This document shows, piece after piece, positions 16,936 to 63,631 of a stretch of DNA of 64,000 bases. The notes below the pieces were generated by a model that made no database searches, was not told the DNA's origin, and saw nothing but the letters and a program-made list of their open reading frames with translations. A program made the translations under genes and the position numbers. Position 1 is the first letter of the stretch. Each line of letters begins with the position of its first letter. The stretch is from a virus, in the IMG/VR virus record IMGVR_UViG_3300032080_000001, positions 59,874 to 123,873 of that record, one strand, 5' to 3'.

Positions 16936-16964
16936 TTGACATACCGGTACCACGCTGTTATACT
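16936..16964 (+). promoter_or_regulatory. promoter of the RNA locus (class B-like)
   Basis: TTGACA, 17-nt spacer starting with TACCGGTAC, TATACT. No open frame of any length starts after it; it reads into structured noncoding DNA, the tRNA-like element and the tmRNA. Confidence 0.8.
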
Positions 16965-16965
16965 A

Positions 16966-17815
16966 GTGGCACGACGACGGACGACTAACGCGACGCCACG
17001 CAGCGCGCTTCCCGCCCGACAGGCCAGGCCCTAGAGCCAGTGGCGACACAGGGAATGCGGACGCGCAGCAAGACGAGACGCAGAAGTCCTGAGACGAACA
17101 ACGGGGCCGCGAATGAACGCCTCGCACATTGCGGTGCAACTCAGGGCTGGTGAAGGATACGGCGTTAAGCAGTAGCCAGCCTCCTTCGATGGGGATACGC
17201 CGTTCGTCCCGCAGTGTGGGCTCCATGCAGTTGGCGCAGCGCGCCGAGGCTGATTGACAACCGACGTTCTGTGACGAAGGTACACGGCCGCGACCACCGC
17301 GAGTCGGCCCCACGTTGACCCGGCAACCCCGGAGAGTGGGTTGTGGAGGAAGCAAGTCTCCTTACGAGCGCCAGAAGAGAGACCGACTCCCGTGTACCAC
17401 GCCGTGCCGAGGCCGCGCAATCTCTTCCTCGGCGTAACACCCCGCTCTTTCGTGTTGACCCGTTGGTAGGCCACGGCCGAAAACGACGAGCGAAGGATGC
17501 GGTTTAGTCGGAGGAGATATCCCGCCTGTATAGCACACGCGAGAAGACTCCTTGTTAAGACAGCCGCGCGGGGCGGCACGTGAGGAAAAGGGCTCACCCC
17601 TCCCTGGAGGGGGACACGCCGTCACCTCACCCCGCACTCTGCTCCTCTGGTGTAAGCAGCACCCCGTGTTCAGCGGCAGTCGAGGTTCAAGTCCTCGGAG
17701 GAGCATATCCGACTCCGGCACACGACGGAGAAAGCCCACGGAGCCTTGACTGGCCGAGAGACCTGCCGGTGGGATAAAGGATTCAGGCTGACAGCCGGGA
17801 AAGACCGGCACCTAC
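16966..17815 (+). ncRNA. long structured noncoding RNA candidate
   Basis: About 850 nt between a strong promoter and the tmRNA with no believable reading frame on either strand. It holds several local hairpins, for example GCCGAGG / CCTCGGC around 17405-17437 and a GGCCGAAAACG loop region near 17475, and a tRNA-like unit with a T-loop at 17641-17705. Size, phage context and closeness to tRNA and tmRNA genes resemble the large ornate RNA classes GOLLD and ROOL. I cannot match a consensus by eye, so the class is unknown; it may be one RNA or a precursor. Confidence 0.5.
17641..17705 (+). tRNA. tRNA-like element (degenerate)
   Basis: Seven-base-pair acceptor GCTCCTC / GAGGAGC, discriminator A and a perfect T-arm CGAGG-TTCAAGT-CCTCG. 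The D-arm is minimal (GTG / CAC, loop lacks GG) and the anticodon arm has only three pairs with G where U33 is expected; the apparent anticodon would be UUC (Glu). Only 65 nt. Either a decayed tRNA or a tRNA mimic within a larger RNA. Confidence 0.35.
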
Positions 17816-18211
17816 GGGCTCGCCAGGCTTCGACAGGTGCAGACGCAGGTGGAGGGTATGCGTGCAAGGGGCGTCTTCCGGTCTCTTTGAACACACGGAA
17901 GAAACTTCAAATGCCACTCGTAACGACGTGGTTGCCGTGAACGCGATTCCCGCGTACGCCCAGGCGTAAAACCCTGCGGTAGGCACCGGCCAAACCGACT
18001 CCGATAGGGGCGGCCGTACTGCATCGGAGGACACCGGGAAAGACTGGGGTGGACGGCCTGTGCACCTAAAACACGGCAGGGAAGGGGGTCAGACCTCCAG
18101 CGGGCCGCGTACGCCCGACCGCCCAACGAATGGGTCACACTACGCTACGCACGCTGAATAGTCCGAAACAGGCTTTGTGCTTGGACGCGGGTTCGATTCC
18201 CGCCGAGTCCA
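17816..18211 (+). ncRNA. ssrA: transfer-messenger RNA (tmRNA)
   Basis: 396 nt. The 5' end GGGCTCG pairs with 3' CGAGTCC, with G3-U as the third pair, the alanine identity element. GGCTTCGACAGG near the 5' end and CTACGCACG plus a T-arm GCGGGTTCGATTCCCGC near the 3' end are tmRNA signatures. A tag reading frame at 17913-17969 encodes ATRNDVVAVNAIPAYAQA then TAA; the resume codon is my inference. No CCA is encoded. Rescues stalled ribosomes and tags the product for proteolysis. Confidence 0.85.
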
Positions 18212-18215
18212 CTAA

Positions 18216-18357
18216 GAGGAGTCAGGTCCGATACTGGTAGGTGGGACGGGACGCGCACCGCCACCGGAGGGAGGTGAGAACCGCTGATGACCCTGTGCAC
18301 GGGTAGGCGGCAACTTGCCCCGAGGAAATATCCGGTAGCCCACCCCTGGCTCCTCCT
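18216..18357 (+). ncRNA. structured RNA segment 3' of tmRNA
   Basis: GAGGAGTCAGG at 18216 can pair with CCTGGCTCCTC at 18347 (one G-U), enclosing about 120 nt with smaller hairpins. No convincing gene. Could be a separate RNA or a processing spacer. Confidence 0.35.
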
Positions 18358-18373
18358 GTTAGGCCGTACCGAA

Positions 18374-18392
18374 CCGCAGCGGTTTCTGCGGG
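18374..18392 (+). repeat. repeated hairpin copy 1
   Basis: CCGCAGCGG then TTCTGCGGG; the same hairpin recurs at 18769-18795 and 19225-19253. Confidence 0.5.
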
Positions 18393-18422
18393 AGCTTCAC
18401 CACCTCAAAGAAAGGAACCGCA

Positions 18423-18554
18423 ATGGACCCGCTCATGGAGAATCCGTACCCGACCACCGGCGACCCGACCGAGTACCCCGTGCTGCCGCCGCTGGAGGAC
18501 GACCCCAACGGCCCCGCGCAGACTCCGGGCGCGCTGTTCCCTCTGCCGGGCTGA
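18423..18554 (+). CDS. 43-residue Pro-rich protein
   Basis: Acidic and Pro-rich (YPTTGDPTEYPVLPPLEDD), probably disordered. GAAAGG is 8 nt before the ATG. Not recognised. Confidence 0.55.
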   Translation: MDPLMENPYPTTGDPTEYPVLPPLEDDPNGPAQTPGALFPLPG

Positions 18555-18576
18555 CCGACGCCCTCAAGGAGTGGGG

Positions 18577-18756
18577 ATGAGTATTTTCAGCGCACCTGCG
18601 GTCTCCATCACGGAGACCGACAACACCGAACGTCCTCCGCTGCCCGGCGAGTCGAGCACGCTGCTGATTCCCGGCAGTGCGGAGCAGGGCGGGGGCGGCA
18701 TCGGGGACCCGAGCGGTGGGGGAGACCCGCCTCCCCCGGTGGAGCTGGGAGACTGA
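18577..18756 (+). CDS. 59-residue Gly/Pro-rich protein
   Basis: AAGGAG precedes the ATG. A short strand-forming N-terminus, then a Gly/Pro-rich tail (GGGGIGDPSGGGDPPPP). Similar in style to the preceding gene; likely disordered, function unknown. Confidence 0.5.
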   Translation: MSIFSAPAVSITETDNTERPPLPGESSTLLIPGSAEQGGGGIGDPSGGGDPPPPVELGD

Positions 18757-18830: not shown

Positions 18831-19244
18831 ATGCTGTTCGGAAGCGCACAACAGGAGGAGCAGTTCAAGGAGAACCACTTCTTCGGACTGCATGACACCT
18901 GTGGCGGGGGTTACACTTCGCCCGCAGGTTGGGCGGAGGACGCGGCGTGGCACTGCGTCGGGGAATACGCGGCCATCGAGTACGAGAACGGGAAGCGTGT
19001 CGGTCTGCTCCTTCCGTACGCGAGCTACAGCAATCCGCGCAACTACGTCGAGAGCGCCTGGGCGAGGGACGCTATCTTGCGCGTGCGTACCTCGATGACC
19101 GGGGACAGCGCCGCGCACTTCGACACCAGCATCCCGACGAAGGGCATCAGCGACATCCAGTGGTTCTTCGCGTACGCGACTGACGAGAACTTCGCGGGGC
19201 CGCAGTACCAGAAGGACCCGCCCGCCCCGCAGCGGGTGCAGTAA
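18831..19244 (+). CDS. hypothetical protein
   Basis: 137 residues, alpha/beta, with WAEDAAWHCVGEYAAIEYE and LLLPYASYSNPRNYVESAWARDA. GAAAGG precedes the ATG. Not recognised. It lies inside the RNA-rich locus. Confidence 0.65.
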   Translation: MLFGSAQQEEQFKENHFFGLHDTCGGGYTSPAGWAEDAAWHCVGEYAAIEYENGKRVGLLLPYASYSNPRNYVESAWARDAILRVRTSMTGDSAAHFDTSIPTKGISDIQWFFAYATDENFAGPQYQKDPPAPQRVQ

Positions 19245-19253
19245 TTCTGCGGG
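19225..19253 (+). repeat. repeated hairpin copy 3
   Basis: CCCCGCAGCGGG then TTCTGCGGG, spanning the stop codon of the preceding gene. Confidence 0.5.
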
Positions 19254-19722
19254 TGGTGGAGAAGACGACCGTAACCGGTTGTCCCCAAACGAGGCTCGGG
19301 CGTGACGCCTCTGCGAAGCACGCCCCGTGGGCAATAGTCGGCTGGCAAGTTACCGGTGCTCTGCGCCAACCCACGTAAAACAAGTGACGTAACCGGGTGG
19401 GACGATGGTGGCCGGGTGAAGTAGGTAGCCCGGTGGACGGCAAGGCCGTCCGGTGCACCGCTCAAGGTGCTTCCGGGGTTCGAGTCCCCTCAGTCCCTTA
19501 CCCACTCCACGCAACGCAGGAAAGCCGTAGCGCCCGCGATAGAGGCAGGCGCCGCTTTGGGGCGAAAGCCTGGCGAGTACGTGATAAGAAGTGGGTTTGT
19601 AAAGAAGGGCCGGTAGCCGTAGCGTGGACACGGCTGCGTGGTAGGCTCCACGGGTCGCGCAAGCGACCGCCTGACTTTTGAATGAGGGCCGGAAGTACCT
19701 GTTGTGGCAGGGAAACCGTTGC
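19254..19722 (+). ncRNA. second structured noncoding RNA region
   Basis: About 470 nt without a believable gene, packed with hairpins: CCGGG / CCCGG, GGACGGC-AAG-GCCGTCC, GCACC / GGTGC, a T-arm-like GGGG-TTCGAGT-CCCC, CGTGG / CCACG near 19640 and GGTCGC-GCAA-GCGACC near 19655 with a GNRA loop. It runs into tRNA-Lys. Includes a class II tRNA-like unit listed separately. Confidence 0.45.
19399..19498 (+). tRNA. class II tRNA-like element, identity unclear
   Basis: Ends GGGAC / GTCCC pair; inside are a D-arm-like CCGGG / CCCGG, an anticodon-like GGACG-GCAAGGC-CGTCC, a long variable-arm-like GCACC / GGTGC and a T-arm with loop TTCGAGT. Layout resembles tRNA-Leu/Ser, but U33 is missing and the D-stem is too long. 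Possible decayed tRNA or mimic. Confidence 0.3.
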
Positions 19723-19795
19723 GCCGCGTTAGCTCAGTTGGTAGAGCAGGGGACTCTTAATCCCAAGGTCGGAGGTTCGAACCCTCCACGCGGCA
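19723..19795 (+). tRNA. tRNA-Lys(CUU)
   Basis: 73 nt. Acceptor GCCGCGT / ACGCGGC, D-arm GCTC / GAGC with AGTTGGTA loop, anticodon loop CTCTTAA (CUU), T-arm GGAGG-TTCGAAC-CCTCC, discriminator A. The first anticodon-stem pair is a G-A mismatch. CCA is not encoded. Confidence 0.9.
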
Positions 19796-19800
19796 TTAAG

Positions 19801-20065
19801 CGAAGTAGGGCGGGGATGAACGCGGCCGATAACAACGGTGCCGCCGACCTGTCGATTGCAACGGCCAGCCTGAGAGCGTACGGCTCAGGGGATACCCTAC
19901 TTCGTGATTCTGGAGCGAGGTGGCGTGGGGCGGAGTCACAGCTTCGCCTTAAAGCGGAAGGAGAAGTCCCACCTTCCCGCCTCGTAGAAGGTGCCCCGTT
20001 GACTGTGCTGGACGGCCCGGCTTGCCGGGGACGGTGTCCAGACTTGAAAAGCACTCACGCCACGC
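19801..20065 (+). ncRNA. third structured noncoding RNA region
   Basis: CGAAGTAGGG at 19801 pairs perfectly with CCCTACTTCG near 19895, enclosing CCTGAG / CTCAGG. Then come CGAGG...CCTCG and CTGGAC / GTCCAG around CCGGC-TT-GCCGG. No plausible gene until the lipoprotein at 20158. Confidence 0.4.
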
Positions 20066-20157
20066 GGCGAGGACGGGTAAGCGCGCGTGGAGGTTTACCG
20101 GTTCCTGCCAGTAGGCGAATACCGGCTCCCTCCCCTCCTTCGCGAAAGGCGAATCGT

Positions 20158-20400
20158 ATGGCTCGCACGACCAAGATGCTCCTGCTGGCGGTGCTGGCGG
20201 CCGTGGTCTCGATGACCGCGTACGCGTGCAGCACTCCCGCCGCGCCCGAGACCCCTGCCAGCATTCGTCACGGCAGCGGCGTGCTCGTGGGCGGCAACCG
20301 CACCGACAGCACCGCCGCCACGAACGGCACCAACAGCACGCCCGTCACCGCGACGGACACCACCGGCCGGACCGGGGGCACGACGCTCGGCGGCAACTGA
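20158..20400 (+). CDS. small lipoprotein
   Basis: 80 residues. Signal peptide MARTTKMLLLAVLAAVVSMT followed by lipobox TAYAC, so cysteine 23 is expected to be lipidated after signal peptidase II cleavage. The mature part is Thr/Asn/Gly-rich and disordered. Such phage lipoproteins can act in superinfection exclusion or lysis; the role here is unknown. Confidence 0.75.
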   Translation: MARTTKMLLLAVLAAVVSMTAYACSTPAAPETPASIRHGSGVLVGGNRTDSTAATNGTNSTPVTATDTTGRTGGTTLGGN

Positions 20401-20450: not shown

Positions 20451-20479
20451 TTGACAAACCGCTGTGACCCGATTAGCTT
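20451..20479 (+). promoter_or_regulatory. class A promoter
   Basis: TTGACA, spacer with TGACCC, TAGCTT; 70 nt before 20521. Confidence 0.8.
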
Positions 20480-20520: not shown

Positions 20521-20745
20521 ATGGAGCGCACCCCGGTAAACAGCAGCAACATCGCGTCGGTGGGGTACACCCGTAACCCGGATACCGTGGGGATGGGAAC
20601 CCTGGAAGTCGAGTTCAAGAACGGCGCGGTCTACCAGTACGACGACGTGCCGTGGGAGACGCACGACGCCCTGCTGCGGGCGGAGTCGGCGGGGAGCGTC
20701 TTCTCGCACTCCGTTCGGGGCGTGTTCACGGGGAGGCGCGTGTGA
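20521..20745 (+). CDS. KTSC-domain protein
   Basis: 74 residues. NSSNIASVGYTRNPDTVG, GTLEVEFKNGAVYQYDDVP and LLRAESAGSVFSHSVRG match the KTSC domain, common in phages and near lysyl-tRNA synthetase genes; function unknown. A good AGGAGG precedes the ATG. Confidence 0.85.
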   Translation: MERTPVNSSNIASVGYTRNPDTVGMGTLEVEFKNGAVYQYDDVPWETHDALLRAESAGSVFSHSVRGVFTGRRV

Positions 20746-60376: not shown

Positions 60377-60598
60377 ATGCACGACACGATCAACGGCTAC
60401 GACGGCGACAGCGAGTGCGAGGGTACGCTGGCGGGACTGAACGAGGACCAGCTGAACGACTACGAGGACGTGCTGTTGCGCGACTGGGAAGAGCAGGACG
60501 ACAGCGAATGGGATGCGCTGGAGGAAGCGTATGACGACGACGTGACCGACGCGTATCGCCAGACGCGCGAGTGGTTCGATACGGACGACAACGACTGA
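60377..60598 (+). CDS. very acidic small protein
   Basis: 73 residues with about 30 Asp/Glu and only 4 basic residues. LNEDQLNDYEDVLLRDWEEQ and the DDDVTDAYRQTREWF helix. Such charge suits a DNA-mimic (anti-restriction or anti-repressor) protein; that is inference. GATC in codons 4-5. Confidence 0.65.
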   Translation: MHDTINGYDGDSECEGTLAGLNEDQLNDYEDVLLRDWEEQDDSEWDALEEAYDDDVTDAYRQTREWFDTDDND

Positions 60599-60970
60599 CC
60601 GCCGCGCCGGGGCATTCGCGCCCCACGTGAGACACCGGTGCCACACCCCTCCCCCTTTCCGCCGCCGGGGGAGGGGCGGGTGCGGTCGAAGCTGCTGGTT
60701 GAGGCAAAATTTTTGGGAATTTTGACGATTCTCTGTCAGAAGGGTCCCCTTTCGGAACGGGTCCCATAGACGGCGAACTTGGGTCCCCTCTTGGGTCCCA
60801 TCTGCCTCTCAAGTCGGGTCCCCTCTGTAGCTGGACTTGTGGACCTGGCCGCCACGCAGGACTCAACAACACCTCTTCATACGAACGTGTTGGAACCAGT
60901 TCCAATCAGGGTTCCAATCTTCGGCGGCTACGCCGCCTGCTCGTCCCGCCCTCCCGGTAAGCCCTCCACA
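60599..60970. other. noncoding region with repeats
   Basis: About 370 nt without a gene. Holds an AT-rich stretch (AAAATTTTTGGGAATTTT near 60706), then the GGGTCCC repeats, then GGTTCCAATC words (60890-60920). Possible regulatory or replication region. Confidence 0.5.
60744..60824 (+). repeat. GGGTCCC direct repeats
   Basis: Five GGGTCCC heptamers, followed alternately by CT and A (CCCCT, CCCA, CCCCT, CCCA, CCCCT), within about 80 nt. The heptamer is itself palindromic apart from the centre. Confidence 0.7.
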
Positions 60971-61165
60971 CTAGTCTCCCCACAAAGGCCGCTCGGGGCT
61001 CCGCACTTCTTGCCGGATCAGTGCCATCACGGCCGCCTCCGGCGTGGCGCCCCAGGCGAGGCCCGTGGCCGTGTAGCCCAGGGCGATGTACACGAAGGGT
61101 CCCTCGGTGGGGTCCACGGGATGACGACCGCGATAGAGTCTAAGAATCGGGTAGGATGGTAGCAT
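60971..61165 (-). CDS. hypothetical protein, leftward
   Basis: 64 residues. GPFVYIALGYTATGLAWGAT and PEAAVMALIRQEVR look like a real strand-helix protein. The ATG sits in a TACCGGTATG word with no usual leader. Opposite in direction to nearly everything else. Confidence 0.45.
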   Translation of the reverse strand: MLPSYPILRLYRGRHPVDPTEGPFVYIALGYTATGLAWGATPEAAVMALIRQEVRSPERPLWGD

Positions 61166-61285
61166 ACCGGTACTCTAACGAGCCGTAGGCTACCTTGCAA
61201 TACCTGTCTTGTGGTGTTATACTACCGGTACACAGGCGCGCGGCTTGCGCGCCGCTTCATTGTCCCACTGTACCGGTACTGTACC
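61155..61285. promoter_or_regulatory. bidirectional control region with class B words
   Basis: Three TACCGGTAC words (61164, 61224, 61271). Rightward promoter TTGCAA, 17 nt, TATACT (61195-61223) followed by ACCGGTAC. Lies between the leftward gene and the integration genes; a likely lysogeny switch. Confidence 0.55.
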
Positions 61286-61290
61286 TGTCG

Positions 61291-61497
61291 ATGTTGCGGA
61301 CGATTCGTGCGCGCCTTTTCGCGCGCCTCTTTCCCGAGCAAGCCGCTGACCTGCGACGCGCGGACCTCTACCGCCGGGCACTCAAGCTCATCGCGCTACT
61401 TGAACACACCACCGGTGTGCACCCCTCCAGCTTGGAGGCGTACGAGCCCGCGATGGTGGCGCTCGTCACCCTGGACGCCGCTGAGACGCTTCGATGA
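61291..61497 (+). CDS. hypothetical protein
   Basis: 68 residues. FPEQAADLRRADLYRRALKL: basic helices. Shares an LYRxALxLIA block with the next gene. Confidence 0.6.
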   Translation: MLRTIRARLFARLFPEQAADLRRADLYRRALKLIALLEHTTGVHPSSLEAYEPAMVALVTLDAAETLR

Positions 61498-61996: not shown

Positions 61997-62394
61997 TGCT
62001 GGATACGAACTGGCTGGACGCGTTCCTCACGAGCGCGGAGAACGAAACGAGCATCCTGCGCGAGAACGGCGCCGGGTGTCAGGTGGAGGCGCGCGAGCGG
62101 TTGCTGACTAAGCTGCGCGAGGCCGCCACCCTTGCTCAAGACGAGACCGTCTCGGTCGAGCAGGCGGTGGTACTGACCGGAGTAAACCCGGAGACCGTCC
62201 GCCGCGCGGTGCGAAGCGGGGAGGTGACCGACTTGCGGTCAAGCCCCAAACAGACCATCCGCGTGCTCAAGCGAGACTTGCCGCTACTCGCGGCAAAGAG
62301 GCGCCGTAAGAGCAACGGTCTTGCGGGGGACACCGTCGATGCGTACAATGCTGAGGCCGATGCCGAGGCGGTGCTCGGACGGTTCACTCGATAG
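61996..62394 (+). CDS. helix-turn-helix protein, excisionase candidate
   Basis: 132 residues. VSVEQAVVLTGVNPETVRRA then VRSGEVTDLRSSP is a MerR/Xis-like winged helix-turn-helix, followed by a basic segment. Position immediately before the integrase is typical for a recombination directionality factor. Could also be a regulator of integrase. Confidence 0.65.
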   Translation: MLDTNWLDAFLTSAENETSILRENGAGCQVEARERLLTKLREAATLAQDETVSVEQAVVLTGVNPETVRRAVRSGEVTDLRSSPKQTIRVLKRDLPLLAAKRRRKSNGLAGDTVDAYNAEADAEAVLGRFTR

Positions 62395-62413
62395 GGGTCT
62401 CCCCGAGGTACAC

Positions 62414-63631
62414 ATGGCAGTCAACTCCGAAGTCATCGGAGTCGAGGGCCTTCGGGTGCGCATCTACCAGCGCGTACCTGGAGGCCCTTTTCAGCGCGAG
62501 GTGAAACTCCGGCTCCAGGACGGCTCATGGAAAACGGACCGGGAGAGCTTAGGCCACCGGGACCAAGGCAAGGCACGAGGACAGGCGCGACTGCTCCTCG
62601 CCGCCCTTCTTAAGAAGCAACCTCACGATACTCTGCCTAATACGCAGGCAGGGTTACGGTTGGGCGGACTCATCTCCCTCTACACCAGAAGCGAAGAGTG
62701 GCAGACCATCGAGCCGAAGACCCGCCGGGACCGCGCGAAGTCCTTCGCCATCCTGGCCGCCTACTTCGGGACGGACTTCGACCTCAAGCTCTTCAATAAC
62801 TCGCACGCCTTGCGCTACACGAAGGACCGCCTGGCTGGGACGTTTGCCCACCCTCAGATTCGCGTCCGGAAGGGCTCCCGCGCCTGTCAGCCGCAGACGG
62901 TGAAGAATGACCTGGCCGCTCTGCGCACGGCCGCCCTGTGGGCGTACGGGCAAAAGGACCGAGAAGGGAATCGACTTCTCGCAGAACGCATCTTCGACGG
63001 CGTGACGCTTCCCGAGGAGAAGAACCCCCGACAGCCTCTCATTTCAGACAGCCTCTTCGATCAGCTCTTGGCCGTGGCCGACACGACGCGCCACCCTATG
63101 TTCCGAGTCGCCCTCATCCTGGCTGAGGCGTTCGGCAATCGCATTTCCAGCATCCGACACCTTGCCTGGGCGGACATCCGGTGGGCTGACCGGGAGGTGT
63201 GGTGGAACCCTATATATGACAAGATGGAGTACGAACGGACGAGCCACATCCCGGACGACGTGCTGGCGGCCCTGGCCGCTTGGAGAGACGACCCGTCTCG
63301 ACTACCTTCCCCTTGGATACTGTACGCCCCGGCGGACCCGACACGGCCCGTCAGCGAGAACCGAGTACAGCTATGGATGACACGAGCCTTCACGAAGCTC
63401 GGGACACCTCGCCCGAAGGGATTCGGCTGGCACGCCCTCCGAAGGAAGTGGAACACCGACCGGAAAGACCTGCCGATGAAGGACGTGATGGCCGCCGGGG
63501 GCTGGAAGAGCCTTGCCGCCTTCCTGCGGTACCAGCAGCCGGACAAGGCAACCATGCGGGCCGTGATGACACACCGGCGGAGAGCACGTGGTGACACGGT
63601 TGGTGACAGCACGACAGGCGGGGATTCTTAA
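62414..63631 (+). CDS. int: tyrosine recombinase (phage integrase)
   Basis: 405 residues. An N-terminal arm-type domain, core-binding helices and a C-terminal catalytic domain: Arg I in FGNRISSIRHL (about 240), HALRRKW (His/Arg II, about 339-342), GGW and RYQQPD with the nucleophile Tyr near 372. Catalyses site-specific recombination between attP and a host att site. The half-tRNA sequence 40 nt downstream is the likely attP core. Confidence 0.93.
   Translation: MAVNSEVIGVEGLRVRIYQRVPGGPFQREVKLRLQDGSWKTDRESLGHRDQGKARGQARLLLAALLKKQPHDTLPNTQAGLRLGGLISLYTRSEEWQTIEPKTRRDRAKSFAILAAYFGTDFDLKLFNNSHALRYTKDRLAGTFAHPQIRVRKGSRACQPQTVKNDLAALRTAALWAYGQKDREGNRLLAERIFDGVTLPEEKNPRQPLISDSLFDQLLAVADTTRHPMFRVALILAEAFGNRISSIRHLAWADIRWADREVWWNPIYDKMEYERTSHIPDDVLAALAAWRDDPSRLPSPWILYAPADPTRPVSENRVQLWMTRAFTKLGTPRPKGFGWHALRRKWNTDRKDLPMKDVMAAGGWKSLAAFLRYQQPDKATMRAVMTHRRRARGDTVGDSTTGGDS

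What the first reader, a model, noticed from the sequence alone, without database searches (positions are those of the whole stretch)
16936..17815. Long structured noncoding RNA beside tmRNA in a phage-like genome
A clean promoter (TTGACA-N17-TATACT) opens about 850 nt with no usable gene, several hairpins and an embedded tRNA-like unit, then a tmRNA. Large ornate RNAs of phages (GOLLD, ROOL) are known to sit next to or contain tRNAs. This could be a divergent member or a new class. It is the best candidate here for an undescribed system.
Basis: partly seen in the sequence, partly recalled or inferred. Interest (0 to 1): 0.88.

Follow-up and report, generated by a model that had tools for sequence, protein, structure and literature searches.

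The report
Phage noncoding operon around a tmRNA
In an uncharacterised phage with a high-GC genome, a strong promoter drives about 850 bases that encode no protein and contain a tRNA-shaped element without a normal anticodon, followed by a tmRNA and more RNA genes; it is a real, unclassified RNA locus, but nothing here shows that the long RNA is an elaborately folded molecule like GOLLD or ROOL.

Summary
The promoter (11 of 12 bases) belongs to a phage-wide set: 19 on the + strand, none on the other, 0.3 expected. The stretch 16971-17815 has no coding signal. With the tmRNA it forms the longest noncoding run in the window; the second longest is 19.2-20.2 kb, around a tRNA-Lys. The tRNA-like unit (17641-17704) is beyond chance (0.005 expected per 64 kb strand) but lacks a normal anticodon arm. 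The tmRNA (17816-18212) is genuine.

No GOLLD, ROOL or other Rfam family matches even at E = 5-10. Folding of the long segment is no better than shuffles, with fewer confident pairs, although energy z-scores also fail on the tmRNA. No homologue of the long segment exists in the collections searched, so covariation could not be tested.

Best reading: one stable-RNA transcription unit, cut up by RNase P at tRNA-like elements; the role of the 670-nt first segment is open. By-product: a covarying, Rfam-unlisted ~90-nt RNA family lies in other phages' tRNA arrays, so such arrays do carry undescribed RNAs. The window is not a member.

The parts
16936..16964 (+). Promoter, TTGACA-N17-TATACT with TG before the -10; expected start of transcription about 16971
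   Evidence: 11/12 match; one of 19 on the + strand, 0.3 expected
16942..16949 (.). Palindrome TACCGGTA inside the promoter spacer; candidate operator
   Evidence: 17 copies in the window against 0.30 expected, several at promoters
16971..17640 (+). nc1: about 670 nt noncoding 5' segment, no known family
   Evidence: Codon score strongly negative; no Rfam match; no BLASTN match
17641..17704 (+). TLS1: tRNA-like cloverleaf with shortened anticodon arm and no GG in the D-loop; candidate RNase P signal
   Evidence: Fold z -3.2; chance 0.005 per 64-kb strand; not called by ARAGORN; Rfam mascRNA 24.3 bits, below its cut-off of 42.5
17705..17815 (+). 111 nt spacer between TLS1 and tmRNA, with a 7 bp helix TGCCGGT/ACCGGCA
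   Evidence: helix not significant alone (22 of 100 shuffles as good)
17816..18212 (+). tmRNA, one-piece; tag ATRNDVVAVNAIPAYAQA; G3.U70 in the acceptor stem; CCA not encoded
   Evidence: Rfam RF00023 58.9 bits; ARAGORN; sequence
18213..18422 (+). nc2: noncoding; 11 bp helix 18216-18226/18345-18355 starting 4 nt after the tmRNA
   Evidence: Anchored-stem p = 0.010; helix P>0.85
18423..18554 (+). Small ORF, 43 aa
   Evidence: Codon score positive
18571..18756 (+). ORF, 61 aa, weak coding signal
18831..19244 (+). ORF, 137 aa, no family
   Evidence: Codon score +10.4; no Pfam match
19245..19722 (+). nc3: noncoding, with a second tRNA-like domain (T-arm at about 19474-19490, stem GGGAC/GTCCC) at about 19395-19500
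   Evidence: T-arm scan; helices; codon score -17.5
19723..19795 (+). tRNA-Lys (CTT)
   Evidence: 71.2 bits, ARAGORN
19796..20157 (+). nc4: noncoding; helix 19800-19810/19895-19905 starting 5 nt after the tRNA
   Evidence: Anchored-stem p = 0.037; the full-length partition function prefers another partner for 19800-19805
20158..20400 (+). ORF, 80 aa, lipoprotein-like (hydrophobic start, Cys); last ORF before the next promoter-like site (TTGACA 20451-20456)
   Evidence: Codon score +7.6; sequence
20521..20745 (+). KTSC-domain protein, 74 aa, just downstream
   Evidence: Pfam PF13619, E 1.5e-16

Best explanation
The locus is a phage stable-RNA transcription unit. A host-type promoter carrying a palindrome that may be an operator starts one transcript at about 16971. 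It runs through a 670-nt noncoding segment (nc1), a cloverleaf without a normal anticodon (TLS1), the tmRNA, further noncoding pieces, small ORFs and tRNA-Lys, ending before the next promoter at about 20451. Because no intrinsic terminator is seen in 15.5-19.5 kb, the tRNA-like elements probably act as punctuation: RNase P cuts at the 5' ends of TLS1, tmRNA and tRNA-Lys and separates the RNAs. TLS1 would thereby form the 3' end of nc1 and free the tmRNA. The tmRNA and tRNAs then support translation and ribosome rescue in infected cells, beside phage RNA ligase and RtcB. nc1 is either an RNA with its own unknown function or a long processed leader. Shown: promoter family, absence of coding, TLS1 fold, tmRNA, tRNAs. 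Inferred: co-transcription, RNase P punctuation, function.
For: Promoter and its family. The two longest noncoding runs of the 64 kb both hold known RNA genes. TLS1 statistics. All five T-arms lie on the + strand, none on the other. No terminator-like site in 15.5-19.5 kb. Helices begin 4-5 nt after the tmRNA and the tRNA-Lys. RNA ligase, RtcB and KTSC proteins are nearby. A phage sharing RNR (44%) and RtcB (51%) also has a tmRNA plus 31 tRNAs and a significant excess of end-closed spacers.
Against: No expression data. Folding of nc1 is not better than shuffles, and its pairing is less defined. No homologue of nc1, TLS1 or nc2-nc4 was found. TLS1 could be a decayed tRNA. One transcript across the small ORFs is inferred only from the lack of other promoters.
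Confidence: 0.55

Rival explanations
1. nc1 is a divergent GOLLD or ROOL RNA, a large phage RNA that assembles into cages.
For: Right size class, phage genome, next to tRNAs and a tmRNA; GOLLD and ROOL lie near tRNA islands and GOLLD linkers can contain tRNAs (PMC12286853).
Against: No GOLLD or ROOL hit at the gathering score or at E up to 10 with permissive filters on a short stretch. The universally conserved 3' region of GOLLD should be detectable.
Confidence: 0.04
2. nc1 is a non-functional or DNA-level stretch: the remains of a decayed tRNA/RNA array or a long leader, with TLS1 a degenerate tRNA.
For: No folding signal, no homologues, shortened anticodon arm in TLS1, tRNA cluster context.
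Against: Phages seldom keep about 0.7 kb of useless sequence (general knowledge). TLS1 keeps 12 perfect pairs in acceptor and T-arm. One of the best promoters of the phage points into it.
Confidence: 0.33
3. The stretch encodes one or more small proteins.
For: Open frames up to 65 aa on + and 188 aa on -.
Against: All have negative codon scores while neighbouring genes are positive; no frame periodicity.
Confidence: 0.04
4. nc1 is a new class of large structured phage RNA, with TLS1 as its 3' processing element. (A stronger form of the best explanation, not exclusive of it.)
For: Strong dedicated promoter, length, noncoding nature, TLS1, matching no Rfam family. Other phage tRNA arrays do hold an undescribed covarying RNA.
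Against: No structural evidence for nc1 itself; a single sequence.
Confidence: 0.28

Closest known systems
GOLLD RNA and ROOL RNA
   Same: Large noncoding RNAs of phages and prophages near tRNA islands; GOLLD often exceeds 800 nt and can have tRNAs in its linker (PMC12286853)
   Different: No sequence or structure match in Rfam scans; here the neighbour is a tmRNA and structure is not demonstrated
mascRNA at the 3' end of MALAT1 (RF01684)
   Same: A tRNA-like element with a reduced anticodon arm at the end of a long noncoding RNA, there cut by RNase P (own knowledge)
   Different: 24.3 bits, below the 42.5 cut-off; only the acceptor and T-arm align; vertebrate, no common origin claimed
Phage T4 small stable RNAs (species 1 and 2) in its tRNA cluster
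   Same: Noncoding RNAs of unknown function transcribed with phage tRNAs (own knowledge; no paper found)
   Different: Those are about 120-140 nt (own knowledge); nc1 is about 670 nt and comes with a tmRNA
tmRNA (RF00023)
   Same: 17816-18212 is a full one-piece tmRNA
   Different: Phage-encoded, with divergent middle part and unusual tag

Membership tests
GOLLD / ROOL | Match to the Rfam covariance model | tested here: not met
   no hit at gathering or E<=10
GOLLD / ROOL | Phage or prophage location near tRNA genes | tested here: met
   family description from PMC12286853
GOLLD / ROOL | Extensive covariation-supported secondary structure | not testable with these tools
   No homologue found
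GOLLD / ROOL | Homo-oligomeric cage | not testable with these tools
   Needs cryo-EM
tmRNA | Rfam model above gathering score | tested here: met
   58.9 vs 47 bits
tmRNA | Tag reading frame with stop | tested here: met
   ATRNDVVAVNAIPAYAQA*
tmRNA | Alanine identity pair G3.U70 | tested here: met
   GGGCTCG/CGAGTCC, third pair G.T (sequence; helix)
tRNA (TLS1) | 7 bp acceptor and 5 bp T-arm with TTCRANY loop | tested here: met
tRNA (TLS1) | 7-nt anticodon loop on a 5 bp stem; called by ARAGORN or RF00005 | tested here: not met
   13-nt arm; no call
mascRNA | Rfam RF01684 above gathering score | tested here: not met
   24.3 vs 42.5 bits
R1, the new ~90-nt phage tRNA-array RNA found here | Match to covariance model R1 | tested here: not met
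   No hit in the window

The most novel reading that the evidence does not exclude
nc1 is a new class of large phage RNA made from its own promoter, whose 3' end is formed by an anticodon-less tRNA mimic that also separates it from a phage tmRNA.
Probability: 0.28. Interest if true: 0.8.

Novelty: new variant of a known kind. Interest (0 to 1): 0.5.

Why it matters
Large phage RNAs near tRNA islands have unknown roles. A phage that puts a long noncoding transcript, a tRNA mimic and a tmRNA under one promoter would link such RNAs to ribosome rescue and tRNA processing, and gives a compact locus for testing. The side result, an undescribed covarying RNA family in other phage tRNA arrays, shows that the gaps in such arrays are worth searching systematically.

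Tried and rejected
Rfam at gathering and permissive thresholds: only tmRNA and tRNAs. BLASTN against phages and plasmids: among the best rows only the tRNA-Lys and the tmRNA 3' end match. Exact patterns from tmRNA and TLS1 in IMG/VR: none. Relatives by adjacent ORFs, RNR and terminase: RNR at most 44%; one 23.9 kb fragment with terminase 59% that does not cover the locus; no tmRNA over the cut-off among the terminase relatives. MFE z-scores, 100-nt windows, longest stems and pairing entropy gave no signal for nc1; the tmRNA control showed that the energy test is weak here. Direct and inverted repeats within the region were judged chance-level by a rough estimate and not pursued. A pattern scan for the R1 family was mis-specified by one base and returned one coding-region hit.

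Full report
Setting. The window is bases 59874-123873 of a 123.9 kb viral contig. Tail sheath, terminase, DNA polymerase I-like, ThyX and RecA-like proteins are visible in the rest of the contig (tail sheath and terminase supported). The window itself has a class II ribonucleotide reductase, RNA ligase, RtcB, a CobT-like protein and a ParB-like protein. It is a tailed, probably contractile phage with no close relative: RNR at most 44% identical in the viral and bacterial collections, and terminase 59% in a single 23.9 kb fragment. G+C is 62-68% throughout, with no dip or jump at the locus.

Observation. The promoter is real by the phage's own grammar. Nineteen TTGACA-N16/17-TAnnnT sites lie on the + strand and none on the - strand, against 0.3 expected; most share CCCTTGACAAA and GACCC. 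The one at 16936 has one of the best -10 hexamers and also carries the palindrome TACCGGTA, which occurs 17 times against 0.30 expected. A codon-usage scan makes 16.82-18.41 kb and 19.21-20.17 kb the two longest noncoding runs of the 64 kb. They hold the tmRNA and the tRNA-Lys. No ORF tested in nc1 on either strand looks coding.

The tRNA-like unit. TLS1 (17641-17704) folds into a cloverleaf with 7 bp acceptor, 5, 4 and 5 bp arms, -28.1 kcal/mol, z = -3.2. Elements with its T-arm and acceptor occur 18 times in 1813 shuffled windows, both strands. TLS1 has no normal anticodon arm and no GG in the D-loop, so it is not an ordinary tRNA. A second T-arm domain lies at about 19395-19500 inside nc3, but its stem extends into a longer helix, so it is a weaker case.

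Structure of nc1. The energy of the 845 nt equals that of shuffles (z = -0.24). Only 6% of bases have a confident partner, against 18 +/- 8% in shuffles. The genuine tmRNA also has a weak z (-0.91; -0.13 in windows), so the energy test cannot reject structure; but its confident-pair fraction (29%) is higher than that of nc1. Stems begin 4 and 5 nt after the tmRNA and tRNA-Lys (anchored p 0.010 and 0.037; the combined p over five sites is 0.005). Thus nc2, and less clearly nc4, have some support as discrete RNAs; nc1 has none of its own.

Relatives. G029 (loci L048, L307, L308) shares RNR (44%) and RtcB (51%) with this phage, has a tmRNA and 31 tRNAs. Its tRNA spacers are closed by end-to-end stems more often than shuffles (18 spacers, Fisher p = 7e-5); some spacers hold small ORFs instead. 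So a tmRNA among tRNAs and extra noncoding pieces recurs, but without detectable sequence similarity to the window outside a tRNA. In a third phage, G011, hairpin-rich noncoding sequence and a small ORF precede the tmRNA.

A by-product. In other phage lineages the spacers between tRNAs hold one RNA of about 90 nt: a 15-bp closing stem in which 5 pairs change on both sides among 5 sequences (93% of cells paired; covariation score above all 500 shuffles) around CTCWAAGAGGMA...CCCACCAG. No Rfam family matches. A covariance model finds it in 6 of 50 records and not in the window or in G029; BLASTN with one member finds none in named phages. The two records G010 and G107 carry the same longer variant and are probably one lineage.

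Mechanism. The order promoter, nc1, TLS1, tmRNA, nc2, small ORFs, nc3, tRNA-Lys, nc4, and a lipoprotein-like ORF, with the next promoter-like site at 20451 (sequence; GACCCGATTA motif at 20466) and no terminator-like site in 15.5-19.5 kb, suggests one transcript matured by cutting at tRNA-like elements. Cutting of tRNA-like RNAs by RNase P is established knowledge; that it happens here is inference. RNA ligase, RtcB and a KTSC protein nearby fit a module that protects or supplements translation; this too is inference.

Verdict. A genuine, unclassified phage RNA locus. It is not GOLLD or ROOL by the Rfam tests. That nc1 is an ornate RNA is possible but undemonstrated.

Noticed in passing
L008 12745-12836; L085 12688-12778 and 12938-13028; L043 12452-12540; L023 12784-12870; L018 and L079 12475-12611: Undescribed ~90-nt RNA family in tRNA arrays of other phages: covarying 15 bp closing stem around CTCWAAGAGGMA...CCCACCAG, no Rfam match.
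   Followed up: partly
window, 17 sites (4213, 4443, 5330, 10201, 16942, 22614, 29658, 32710, 37837, 40985, 52289, 60224, 61165, 61223, 61271, 63862, 63873): Palindrome TACCGGTA, 17 copies against 0.30 expected, several in promoter-like sequence such as GTACCGGTACnnTACCGG; candidate operator or second promoter class.
   Followed up: partly
window, + strand, e.g. 1636, 6793, 30025, 43212, 50150: Large family of near-identical promoters, CCCTTGACAAA-N-GACCC-N-TTAnnTT, all on the + strand.
   Followed up: partly
window 20521-20745: KTSC-domain protein directly downstream of the RNA unit, near RNA ligase (22931) and RtcB (25032).
   Followed up: partly
window 60581-61321: Third longest noncoding run, with repeated GGGTCCC segments and three TACCGGTA palindromes.
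   Followed up: no
L308 2463-6646: Array of 24 tRNAs with stem-closed noncoding spacers in a phage that also has a tmRNA.
   Followed up: partly
window 62321-63631: Phage integrase family protein at the end of the contig, which with the ParB-like protein hints at a temperate or plasmid-like life style.
   Followed up: no
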